Source: Solirubrobacter phytolaccae (GTDB taxonomy: Bacteria > Actinomycetota > Thermoleophilia > Solirubrobacterales > Solirubrobacteraceae). Taken from it: 32,615 bases of DNA. Shown here piece after piece: positions 13,333-15,368 of the stretch; the first letter of the stretch is position 1, and each line of letters opens with the position of its first letter. The stretch spans positions 1 through 32,615 of the forward strand of contig NZ_JAPDDP010000084.1 in the NCBI RefSeq assembly GCF_027587195.1. Direction: 5' to 3'. A program made the position numbers and the translations under genes. The notes under the pieces were generated by a model. The model saw only the letters and a program-made list of their open reading frames with translations. It searched no databases and was not told the origin of the DNA.

Positions 13333-14553
13333 TCAGCCACCAGACTCGAAGCCGAACTCCTTGATCGGCTTCGACGCACCGCCGCCGCCCGACCGGGTTG
13401 GCGCGGAGCCGCCACCGCCACCGTTCACGCTGGCCACGCCCGCCTTCACGCCGCCGCCGTCGGTGGGCGCGGCCGCGCGCTTGGCGTCGCCTTCGAAGCC
13501 GAACTCCGTCGGCTTGGGCTTGCGCGTGGCGAGCTTGGTCTTCGGCGTCTTGACCTTCACCTTGCGGGTGACGGCGCGCGGCGTGGGCACCGGCGTGGCC
13601 GTCGCGACCGCGGCGTAGGTGCGCGCCGGAGGCTCGTTCTTGGCGGCCTTCACGGGCTTCTTCTCGGCCGACCGAGCCTGCTTCGGGGCCTCCGGCTCGG
13701 CCGTCGCGGTCGGCTCGGCGCGGTCCGCGGCGGCGATGATCGCCGGCGCCGGCAGCGCGCCCGTGACGATGCACGCGCCCGCGCCGGCCCCGCTCAGGCA
13801 CAGCCCGACGAGCGCCGCGGCGGGCCCCAGCCGGCCGCCGCCGTTGGACGCGGCGTACACCGTGTTCCCCACGTCGGGGCGCGACAGCACGCGCGAGATC
13901 CACCCGAACGGCGCGAGCAGCGCGATCCGGCGCGTGCGCGAGAAGCGCATCTGGCGCACGGTCGCGCGGCACGCCGCGCAGTGGCGCAGGTGCGGCCGGA
14001 TCGAGACCATCTGCACGCTCGTCGCCTTGCCCCGCGCGAGCGCGTCGAGCGTGTCCTCGTACGCCGCGCACGCCTCGCCCGACTCGATCTCGCTGAAGAC
14101 GTTCAGGAACCGCTTGCGCCCCTCGGCGATGGAGCGATTCACCTTCGTGTAGGACCAACCGAAGCGGCGGCCGATCTCGTCGTAGGAGAGCCCTTCGGCC
14201 TTGAGCAGCAGCGCCCGCGCCTCGTCGGGCTTGAGCGCCTTCAGCGCCTCGACCGACCGGCCGACGCGCTCCTCGCCCGCGACCGTGTCCGCCACCTCGC
14301 GCAGCCCCTGCGCCTCGCTGGCGTCGAAGTCGGTGTCCTGCACGTCCACCTGCGCCGCGCGCGCCTTGCGGATGGCCATCGCCTCGTGCTTGACGACGAC
14401 CCGCAGCCACGCGCCCTCGGTCGCGACGTCCACCGTCTCGAACCGCCGCAGGTAGATCTCCAGCGCGCGCTGGTAGGCGTCCAGCGCGTCGTCGTGGCAG
14501 AGCGAGAACTGGTTCGCCACACGAATCAGGGTCGGCCCATGCCGGGCCACCAT
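13333..14553 (-). CDS. ECF-like sigma factor fused to anti-sigma-like zinc motif and membrane segment
   Basis: 406 residues from the ATG at 14553, preceded by GAGGAGG and GGAGG; a GTG 20 codons upstream (14613) is an alternative. Residues about 5-65 are sigma region 2 (ANQFSLCHDDALDAYQRALE). Residues about 103-150 are region 4 with a helix-turn-helix (LSYDEIGRRFGWSYTKVNRS). Then comes a zinc-binding anti-sigma-like motif HLRHCAAC (His188, Cys192, Cys195), a hydrophobic segment about 240-272 that could cross the membrane, and a Pro/Lys/Thr-rich tail with two copies of EFGFE near the C-terminus, the second ending the protein in KEFGFESGG. The layout implies a sigma factor that carries its own membrane tether and possibly its own inhibitor. 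The stress signal and target promoters are unknown. Confidence 0.85.
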   Translation of the reverse strand: MVARHGPTLIRVANQFSLCHDDALDAYQRALEIYLRRFETVDVATEGAWLRVVVKHEAMAIRKARAAQVDVQDTDFDASEAQGLREVADTVAGEERVGRSVEALKALKPDEARALLLKAEGLSYDEIGRRFGWSYTKVNRSIAEGRKRFLNVFSEIESGEACAAYEDTLDALARGKATSVQMVSIRPHLRHCAACRATVRQMRFSRTRRIALLAPFGWISRVLSRPDVGNTVYAASNGGGRLGPAAALVGLCLSGAGAGACIVTGALPAPAIIAAADRAEPTATAEPEAPKQARSAEKKPVKAAKNEPPARTYAAVATATPVPTPRAVTRKVKVKTPKTKLATRKPKPTEFGFEGDAKRAAAPTDGGGVKAGVASVNGGGGGSAPTRSGGGGASKPIKEFGFESGG

Positions 14554-14727
14554 CGCCTCCACCCTCCTCGCGCGTACTGCCGCCCCCGGCCCGCGCTCGC
14601 CCAACGCTGCCACCGCTCAACCCATCCTGTCCGTTGCCCTCTCCGGTATTGAGGCGGATCTCGCACACTTTCGCCCCCTCCATTTGGTCAAGAAGTTCGC
14701 AAATAGCGGACATTTCGTCGTGCGAAG

Positions 14728-15368
14728 ATGGATCGCATGCCCCGTGACCCCGAACTGAGCGACTACCTGACGCGCTTCGCCGGCCAGGACGAGGTGCTCG
14801 CGCGCGTTGAACGCGAGACCCGTGAGCTGCCGAACGCCGGGATGATCTCCCGCGCCGACCAGGCCGCGCTGCTGACCATCTTGACCCGCACGCTCGACGC
14901 GAAGGTGGCCGTCGAGGTCGGCACGTTCACCGGGTACGGCGCGATCTGCATCGCGCGGGGGCTCGCGCCCGGCGGACACCTGACGTGCTTCGAGGTCAGC
15001 GAGGAGCTCGCCGCGATCGCGCAGCGCAACCTCGACGCGGCCGGCCTGACCGACCGGGTCACGATCATGCTCGGCCCGGCCGACGAGAACCTCGCACGCT
15101 GACCGAGGAACCGCACATCGACCTCGCGTACGTCGACGCGGACAAGACCGGCTACCCCGCGTACTACGACGCGCTCGTACCGCGGATGCGCCCCGGCGGG
15201 CTGCTGATCCTCGACAACACGCTGCTCGGCAACCGGGTGTTGGACCCACGGGACGAGCGCGCCCGGACGATGGCCGCGCTGAATAAGCGGATCGCCGCCG
15301 ACGATCGCGTGGAGTCGGTGCTGCTCGGACTCAGCGACGGCGTCACCCTCGCCCGTCGCGTCGCATAG
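14728..15368 (+). pseudogene. O-methyltransferase (family 3 type) split by a one-base frameshift
   Basis: Frame 1 runs from the ATG at 14728 (ATG 14737 is an alternative) to a TGA at 15100-15102. It carries a class I SAM-binding motif, VAVEVGTFTGYGAICIARGL. The remainder, DLAYVDADKTGYPAYYDALV and GGLLILDNTLLGNRVLDP, continues in another frame to a TAG at 15366-15368. Restoring one base near 15091-15096, in the GAACCTCGCACG stretch, joins the halves into about 213 residues, the normal length for caffeoyl-CoA-type O-methyltransferases. Both halves look well conserved, so the break is recent, a sequencing error, or a rare translational frameshift. As read, no intact enzyme is encoded. The gene diverges from the sigma-factor gene. 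Confidence 0.85.

What the first reader, a model, noticed from the sequence alone, without database searches (positions are those of the whole stretch)
13333..14553. Sigma factor fused to its own anti-sigma-like zinc motif and membrane tether
One protein carries sigma regions 2 and 4, a HxxxCxxC motif as in zinc-binding anti-sigma factors, a hydrophobic segment that could span the membrane, and a tail with two EFGFE motifs. Normally sigma and anti-sigma are separate proteins. Here activation might require proteolysis or a conformational change across the membrane. Related sigma fusions are known in other phyla, but I do not know this exact arrangement to be characterised.
Basis: partly seen in the sequence, partly recalled or inferred. 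Interest (0 to 1): 0.6.

Follow-up and report, generated by a model that had tools for sequence, protein, structure and literature searches.

The report
Self-inhibited membrane-tethered sigma factor
This soil-bacterium gene encodes a gene-switching protein (sigma factor) that carries its own inhibitor and what looks like a membrane anchor, has a candidate set of target genes including a DNA-uptake-type pilus, and in some relatives is cut in two by virus-like elements.

Summary
Window 13333-14553 (-) encodes sigma regions 2 and 4, a CHCC zinc anti-sigma (ZAS) domain, one hydrophobic segment and a low-complexity tail. It belongs to a family found across Solirubrobacterales and in one more family of the class. 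All 81 complete homologues with HxxxCxxC also keep the fourth ligand; 52 of 81 end in an EF-type tag (22 exactly EFGP) against 0.7 in shuffles. The architecture is a known kind (ECF48/52/53). What is new lies around it. (1) A promoter motif, GGGGGCGAR-N-CCT(A/C), lies upstream of many of these sigma genes and directly before start codons of Tad-pilus, helicase, nuclease and other genes: 71 sites in 16 genomes with the sigma, 3 in 12 without. (2) Sigma and ComEC co-occur (124 both, 70 neither, 38 discordant of 232 genomes). (3) Large-serine-recombinase elements interrupt the gene at codon 137 in five relatives; in the three with both halves, removing the insert restores the frame. Best reading: a tethered, self-inhibited ECF sigma for a Tad-pilus/DNA-processing programme, possibly competence; but comEA-comEC and dprA lack the motif. 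Inhibition, membrane insertion, proteolysis and regulon are inferred.

The parts
13333..14553 (-). fused sigma / zinc anti-sigma / hydrophobic segment / tail gene (406 aa from ATG 14553; GTG 14613 is an alternative start)
14362..14553 (-). sigma region 2 (residues 1-64)
   Evidence: PF04542, 21.5 bits, below its cut-off 24; AlphaFold pLDDT about 95
14110..14250 (-). sigma region 4 (residues 102-148)
   Evidence: PF08281, 35.6 bits
14143..14145 (-). codon K137; the equivalent codon is the junction of serine-recombinase elements in relatives (intact here)
13966..14070 (-). zinc anti-sigma (ZAS) domain, residues 162-196, C162-x25-H188-x3-C192-x2-C195
13765..13821 (-). hydrophobic, presumed membrane-spanning segment (residues 245-263)
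   Evidence: Kyte-Doolittle 1.98; low model confidence
13336..13764 (-). low-complexity, presumed extracytoplasmic tail (residues 264-406)
   Evidence: dN/dS 0.54-0.94 against sigma 0.11-0.28 in four within-genus comparisons
13492..13506 (-). internal EFGFE motif (residues 350-354)
13345..13359 (-). C-terminal EFGFE tag (residues 399-403); 22 of 81 relatives end exactly EFGP
14651..14678 (-). promoter-like element GGGGGCGAA-N15-CCTC, about 100 bases upstream of ATG 14553
14698..14707 (-). GCTATTTGCG box upstream of the promoter-like element (family form GCAATTTGCG)

Best explanation
This is a group 4 (ECF) sigma factor translationally fused to its own zinc anti-sigma domain and anchored in the membrane by one hydrophobic segment, with a long flexible tail outside that ends in a conserved EFG(P/F) tag. 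In the resting state the ZAS, joined to region 4 with almost no linker, holds the sigma domains inactive. A signal read at the tail leads to cleavage outside and then inside the membrane (an S41 tail-specific protease and M50 site-2 proteases are encoded in the genome), which frees the sigma part. The freed sigma fires promoters of the form GGGGGCGAR-N12-16-CCTA/C, one upstream of its own gene and others placed 7-9 nt before start codons (leaderless messages), switching on a Tad-pilus operon (cpaF-tadBC), helicase and nuclease genes, transposase-like genes and surface proteins: a DNA-uptake-like programme. Shown: domain content, conservation, the motif, its distribution, the genes behind it, co-occurrence with ComEC. 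Inferred: inhibition, topology, proteolysis, that this sigma reads that promoter, and the link to competence.
For: Domains. C-terminal tag: 52 of 81 end in EF plus up to 6 residues (22 exactly EFGP), 63 of 81 if E[ML]G[LI]E ends are added; EFGP also ends three of five relatives in family f5 of the class; in 10 genomes chosen because their sigma ends EFGP, the EFGP-stop DNA pattern has 16 hits (reversed control 12), 10 of them at the sigma gene, so it is not a genome-wide tag there. Autoregulation signature: GGGGGCGAR in 32 of 80 sigma upstreams against 1.65 mean (maximum 6) in 100 shuffles and 2 on the reverse strand; with a second box CC[TC][ACT] 19 of 80 against 0.05. Sigma-promoter link: 71 sites (control 3) in 16 genomes with the fused sigma gene, 3 sites (control 5) in 12 without; 0.82 against 0.08 per Mb. 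CpaF directly behind the site in 5 genera, with T2SSF genes after it in the two operons where such a gene could be called, of four fetched. ComEC: 124 both, 70 neither, 19 and 19 discordant of 232. Proteases: 3 M50 matches and 1 S41 match in the genome. Precedent for fused sigma-ZAS-membrane proteins and for proteolysis of IutY: PMC8999054, passages.
Against: The comEA-comEC operon (12 loci) and dprA (13 loci) are not preceded by the motif. DprA is present in 18 of 19 genomes with or without the sigma. Three genomes whose sigma gene is not interrupted (G122, G027, G024) have no site. The genomes hold other ECF sigmas, including paralogues of the same architecture, which could read the promoter. 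The window's own element has CCTC, not CCTA, and is not at leaderless distance. The ComEC association is not corrected for phylogeny; over 51 genera it is 38/5/3/5, p 0.0045, and some discordant genomes are over 90% complete. The membrane segment is not confidently modelled. Foldseek E-values for the ZAS model are weak (best 2.1). No EF or E[ML]G[LI]E end in 18 of 81 homologues.
Confidence: 0.6

Rival explanations
1. The ZAS is a cytoplasmic redox or zinc switch rather than a part to be cut off: loss of zinc changes its shape and frees the sigma while it stays tethered.
For: The zinc ligand spacing is kept in 81 of 81 homologues that passed the HxxxCxxC filter; soluble ZAS proteins work by zinc loss on oxidation (passages of PMC8999054).
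Against: PMC7406223 (passages) reports that zinc motifs are common in membrane-bound anti-sigmas and may be structural, as in RsiW. The conserved C-terminal tag would have no role.
Confidence: 0.2
2. The fused sigma controls its neighbouring secreted surface proteins (envelope or surface-coat programme) and has nothing to do with DNA uptake; the ComEC association is shared ancestry.
For: In several genera a secreted AGxYxVxxC-type protein follows the sigma gene; of four scanned, L044 has clear Ig-like Pfam matches and three have weak ones. Such genes also lie behind the promoter: L321 at leaderless distance, L270 and L282 at 32 and 43 nt. comEA-comEC and dprA lack the motif.
Against: CpaF lies behind the promoter in 5 genera, followed by T2SSF genes in two of them, and RecQ-like, SNase and PD-(D/E)XK genes do too.
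Confidence: 0.35
3. The promoter class belongs to another sigma factor; the fused sigma is one of its targets, not its reader.
For: The genomes carry further sigma-ZAS paralogues, and three sigma-bearing genomes lack sites.
Against: Sites track presence of this sigma across 28 genomes, and ECF sigma genes commonly lie behind their own promoter (recalled; positive autoregulation of ECFs is also mentioned in PMC5826349 passages).
Confidence: 0.25
4. The hydrophobic segment is not a membrane span; the protein is soluble and the tail is a cytoplasmic degron or partner-binding tag.
For: The segment is short and Ala/Gly-rich, 20 of 81 fall below Kyte-Doolittle 1.6, and AlphaFold confidence there is low.
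Against: Charge is N-side positive in 53 of 81; related ECF48/52/53 fusions are described with one to two membrane helices.
Confidence: 0.15

Closest known systems
ECF52 sigma factors (SCO4117 of Streptomyces coelicolor)
   Same: ECF sigma + zinc finger + membrane region + long Pro-rich C-terminal extension in Actinobacteria; activation by proteolysis proposed (PMC5826349 passages)
   Different: no carbohydrate-binding domain found here; a conserved EFG(P/F)-type tag at the C-terminus instead; only one hydrophobic segment noted
ECF48 and ECF53 groups
   Same: described as ECF with a C-terminal zinc finger (likely ZAS) and one to two membrane helices, extensions of up to 400 residues (PMC8999054 passages)
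IutY (ECF243) of Pseudomonas putida
   Same: sigma fused to a membrane anti-sigma, activated by Prc and RseP proteolysis (PMC8999054 passages)
   Different: part of an iron cell-surface signalling system; no such link was looked for here
Class I zinc anti-sigma domains (RsiW, RslA, ChrR, DdvA)
   Same: profile and fold matches
   Different: those are separate proteins; here the domain is fused directly to region 4, and the first ligand is Cys
skin elements in sigK of Bacillus and Clostridioides
   Same: a sigma gene interrupted by a prophage-like element that is excised (start of the abstract of PMC5025042 in a search listing)
   Different: here an ECF sigma is hit, by elements with different cargoes, at codon 137; no evidence of regulated excision
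Tad/Flp competence pilus of Micrococcus luteus
   Same: Tad pilus genes required for transformation in an actinobacterium (PMC4322843 abstract); the controlling cascade is stated to be unidentified (PMC12849477 passages)
   Different: no transformation data for these organisms were seen in what I read; comEA-comEC is not under the motif here

Membership tests
ECF (group 4) sigma factors | sigma regions 2 and 4 only | tested here: met
   (family profile hits SigE of solved M. tuberculosis complexes, E 5.9e-12); PF04542 itself just below its cut-off, TIGR02937 41.7 against 42.9
Zinc class I anti-sigma (ZAS) domain | H-x3-C-x2-C with a fourth ligand about 25 residues upstream | tested here: met
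   81 of 81 (HxxxCxxC was the filter, the upstream Cys was not); C162, H188, C192, C195 invariant in A1, whose 41 rows had passed the same filter
Zinc class I anti-sigma (ZAS) domain | anti-sigma helical fold | tested here: met
   sequence profile; top rows anti-sigma entries; Z 6.4, rmsd 2.1, 56 aligned to RsiW; Foldseek E-values weak, model mean pLDDT 71
Zinc class I anti-sigma (ZAS) domain | binds zinc and inhibits a sigma factor | not testable with these tools
   needs protein work
ECF52 | zinc finger, membrane region, Pro-rich extension | tested here: inconclusive
   zinc finger met; membrane region by hydropathy only and the tail is rich in P, A, G, S and T
ECF52 | carbohydrate-binding domain at the C-terminus | tested here: not met
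   no such Pfam match listed up to E 10
ECF48 / ECF53 | sequence membership of the group | not tested
   group sequences and the classification paper are not held
skin-like intervening element in a sigma gene (relatives, not the window) | element with a large serine recombinase splitting the sigma ORF, frame restored on removal | tested here: met
   G005, G014, G016; G023 and G224 have a recombinase at the junction but no second half on the contig stretch held
skin-like intervening element in a sigma gene (relatives, not the window) | developmentally controlled excision | not testable with these tools
   needs cells
competence-type sigma factor | its promoters precede the DNA-uptake genes comEA/comEC and dprA | tested here: not met
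   0 of 12 comEA-comEC loci, 0 of 13 dprA loci
competence-type sigma factor | its promoters precede the uptake pilus genes | tested here: met
   CpaF in 5 genera, T2SSF genes follow in two of four operons fetched, not called in the other two; that this Tad pilus takes up DNA is inferred from M. luteus, and that this sigma reads the motif is inferred

The most novel reading that the evidence does not exclude
The gene is the missing switch for natural transformation in an order of Actinomycetota: a one-protein sensor, inhibitor and sigma factor that turns on Tad-pilus DNA uptake, and mobile elements evolved recombinases that cut exactly into its promoter-reading helix, which shuts the programme off (or leaves it reversible) and protects them from being removed by transformation.
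Probability: 0.3. Interest if true: 0.85.

Novelty: new variant of a known kind. Interest (0 to 1): 0.6.

Why it matters
A fused sigma/anti-sigma is a compact transmembrane switch, and this family comes with a promoter signature that may make its regulon readable from sequence. If the Tad/ComEC link holds, it offers a testable answer to an open question, how competence is switched on in Actinomycetota (stated as unidentified for M. luteus in PMC12849477, passages). The repeated insertion of recombinase elements into one codon would be a clean case of conflict between mobile elements and a host regulator; mobile elements that inactivate transformation genes are reported in other bacteria (PMC11472951, abstract).

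Tried and rejected
Neighbourhood of the window genes as a clue to function: among the loci held, the window's neighbours (CBS-like, winged-helix, O-methyltransferase) lie beside the sigma gene only within the genus, so they do not explain the family. Single-gene inversion as a switch: the sigma gene has the opposite orientation between the same flanks in G005 and G003 compared with G002, G004, G001 and G006; treated as ordinary rearrangement, not followed.

EFGP as a genome-wide sorting tag: rejected for the 10 genomes searched, all chosen because their sigma ends EFGP; 10 of 16 pattern hits are the sigma gene itself, and the total is near the reversed control of 12.

Viral sources of the inserted elements: with the G005 recombinase one stretch matched in viral contigs but no locus was returned; in phages the 81 matching records are all under 60% identity and none covers 80% of the query (best row 29% identity over 59%). 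A viral contig (L219) has a short sigma homologue that ends after region 4 and is not a split gene.

Competence genes under the promoter: comEA-comEC and dprA upstreams do not have it. The DprA profile does not discriminate. An all-against-all ORF comparison timed out and was repeated with a codon-bias filter. In the VIA-align look at the whole model mainly residues 1-159 were tested, so the ZAS was folded alone.

Not in print, as far as searched: papers on this family, its promoter or its insertions were looked for (open-licence full text only; most listings were capped, for example 20 of 173 papers and 12 of 286); none was seen in the rows shown. The ECF reclassification paper is not held, so the family may already have an ECF group number.

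Full report
WHAT IS THERE. P0001 has sigma region 2 (residues 1-64), region 4 (102-148), a zinc anti-sigma motif (162-196), a hydrophobic segment (245-263) and a low-complexity tail with EFGFE at 350-354 and 399-403. The window is contig C152 of a 7.7 Mb genome.

THE FAMILY. Of 61 genomes (own included) 51 hold a match at E 1e-5; of 232 genomes of the order 143 do at E 1e-15. In a scan of named genomes 148 stretches encode a relative and the best 80 were kept (79 loci); most are titled Solirubrobacter, Solirubrobacterales, Solirubrobacteraceae or Thermoleophilaceae, about a dozen only Actinobacteria or Actinomycetota, and a few MAGs have other names (three Bifidobacterium breve, one Frankiaceae). 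Of 198 genomes of the phylum 11 match at 1e-20: five of the order (own included), five of family f5 of the same class and one outside the class. In the loci then held, 115 distinct sigma N-parts were found; 81 have HxxxCxxC and a stop, and the other 34 are cut by contig ends, interrupted, short or without the motif. All 81 carry the fourth ligand, a Cys, at ZAS spacing. One unfiltered counter-example is L070 (G008), where the motif is lost, probably by a frameshift. A profile of this region finds DdvA, RslA, ChrR and RsiW among solved structures, and zf-HC2 matches 25 of 28 members. AlphaFold gives pLDDT above 90 for 167 of 284 residues, most of the sigma and ZAS parts, but below 50 at residues 229-279. 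The ZAS model alone has mean pLDDT 71 and its best structural neighbours are anti-sigma entries (RsiW Z 6.4, rmsd 2.1, 56 aligned).

THE TAIL. Its sequence is poorly conserved: dN/dS is 0.54-0.94 against 0.11-0.28 for the sigma part in four within-genus comparisons. The extreme C-terminus is conserved: EF within the last 8 residues in 52 of 81, exactly EFGP in 22, and 63 of 81 if E[ML]G[LI]E ends are added; the shuffled mean for EF is 0.74. Of five relatives in family f5, three end EFGP, one LFGP and one SGP. Flanking charge favours N-inside (53 of 81, 12 opposite, 16 tied). A conserved C-terminal tag on a tail thought to lie outside suggests recognition by a PDZ-type or tail-specific protease; IutY, a fused sigma, is activated by Prc and RseP (PMC8999054 passages). 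The genome has one S41 and three M50 matches. This step is inference.

A PROMOTER AND ITS GENES. Upstream of the sigma genes GGGGGCGAR occurs in 32 of 80 (100 shuffles: mean 1.65, maximum 6; reverse strand 2), and with a second box CC[TC][ACT] in 19 of 80 (0.05). A box like GCAATTTGCG lies before it in part of them (14 of 80 at score 8 or more of 10, against 0-1 in 20 shuffle sets). In the window the element is at 14651-14678, GGGGGCGAA-N15-CCTC, about 100 bases before ATG 14553. Across six sigma-bearing genomes the pattern GGGGGCGAR-N12-16-CCTM has 102 hits against 29 for its reversed control. I fetched 40 of the 102, mostly CCTA sites; in 18 of the 40 the best reading frame starts 8 nt after the site. 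With CCTA and a start 7-9 nt later built in, 16 genomes with the fused sigma gene (intact or interrupted) have 71 sites (control 3), 12 without it have 3 (control 5), and 2 with a short sigma have 1. Three of the 16 have none. Of the three exceptions, two (G012, G151) lead into ORFs of 32 aa or less, and the third, in G060 (84% complete), precedes the same small membrane-protein type as in sigma-bearing genomes. I read 50 of these 75 sites: CpaF (5, in five genera), a small RWGNV membrane protein (6), REP-type transposase-like proteins (5), AbiEi/DUF559-like (9), RecQ-like (3), methylguanine-methyltransferase-like (2), response regulators (2), pilin-like GQATTEY proteins (2), SNase (1), PD-(D/E)XK (1), one secreted AGxY-type protein, and others. 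Seven sites lead only into ORFs of 55 aa or less and may be chance. Profile searches named at least one member of the CpaF, transposase, AbiEi/DUF559, RecQ, methyltransferase, regulator, SNase and PD-(D/E)XK groups; the RWGNV and GQATTEY proteins have no match there, and the other assignments are by eye. Of four CpaF operons fetched, T2SSF (TadB/TadC-type) genes follow in G014 and G003; in G036 and G111 my gene calling showed none on that strand.

LINK TO DNA UPTAKE. ComEC is in 13 of 13 sigma-bearing and 0 of 4 sigma-lacking genomes of a first test. Over 232 genomes: both 124, sigma only 19, ComEC only 19, neither 70. Over the 51 of 54 genera whose members I could see in the tables, 38 have both, 5 sigma only, 3 ComEC only and 5 neither (p 0.0045). 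Many discordant genomes are incomplete, but not all: G041 (97%) and G084 (95%) have ComEC only, G017 (96%), G057, G139 (93%) and G224 (91%) sigma only. Against the idea: no motif at comEA-comEC (12 loci) or dprA (13 loci). In M. luteus a Tad pilus is needed for transformation (PMC4322843 abstract).

THE GENE AS A TARGET OF MOBILE ELEMENTS. In three relatives the gene is split at the codon equivalent to K137, in the region 4 helix-turn-helix: G005 (Solirubrobacter soli DSM 22325), G014 and G016, with inserts of 10,655, 8,981 and 18,506 bases. Joining the flanks at the shared core restores the frame (394, 440 and at least 352 aa, the last cut by the contig end). The inserts carry large serine recombinases (Pfam in G005 and G014; by similarity in G016). 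G005 and G014 also have HK97-type capsid genes; G005 has FtsK-like and TIR-domain genes and G014 an SDH-type protease; G016 has a further integrase-family gene. In G023 and G224 a more distant large serine recombinase starts at the same junction in the sense direction. In G223 and G119 the gene breaks at the same place near or at a contig end. I inspected only part of the genomes whose match stopped early (those fetched). Of 19 matches to the G005-type recombinase in the order, 3 lie at the sigma gene; a fourth (L197) has only a weak 49-residue similarity nearby. The interrupted genomes keep promoter sites (G014 11, G016 8, G005 3), and the C-terminal halves are still open, which fits recent or reversible insertion but does not prove excision.

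COMPARISON AND VERDICT. As an architecture this is a known kind (ECF48/52/53, IutY). As a family with its own C-terminal tag, candidate promoter class and integration site it is a new variant, as far as the rows seen show; the ECF classification paper could not be read.

Noticed in passing
L048 4030-14700, L047 5098-14170, L042 700-19240 (G005, G014, G016): Recombinase-bearing elements of 9-18.5 kb, two with capsid genes and one with FtsK-like and TIR-domain (defence-like) genes, sit at the same codon of the sigma gene.
   Followed up: yes
L046 3-215 and 9590-10195, L045 1963-2979 (G008:C31); L223 and L028 ends (G018): A second break point near codon 53-54 (GTCGTC): G008 has the gene in three pieces on one contig (C-part first), G018 has two contig ends overlapping by 8 nt there.
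   Followed up: partly
L073 17945-19216, L074 2046-3299, L072 650-1381: In G103 and G106 the sigma ORF runs at about codon 124 into a sequence that looks like part of a secreted protein (by eye); in G111 it breaks at about codon 122.
   Followed up: partly
window 14728-15368 (+): O-methyltransferase-like gene divergent from the sigma gene appears frameshifted (two overlapping ORFs) compared with single ORFs in relatives.
   Followed up: no
L047 14727-17270, L056 4229-6295, L090 5754-7838, L059, L031, L044 downstream genes: In other genera the sigma gene is followed by a large secreted protein with an AGxYxVxxC-type mature start; Ig-like Pfam matches are clear in L044 only.
   Followed up: partly
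L050/L222 (G000:C103), L220 (G000:C116), L224 (G005:C1): Paralogues with sigma and a ZAS-type motif but no EF-type C-terminus.
   Followed up: partly
L219 4371-4868 (IMG/VR contig): A viral contig encodes a short homologue of this sigma that ends after region 4, without the ZAS.
   Followed up: partly
L255-L294 and L295-L324 promoter sites: Many sites of this promoter class precede REP-type transposase-like and AbiEi/DUF559-like genes; why these share it is unexplained.
   Followed up: no
L055, L048 against L051-L054: The sigma gene alone is inverted between the same neighbours in two Solirubrobacter genomes.
   Followed up: no
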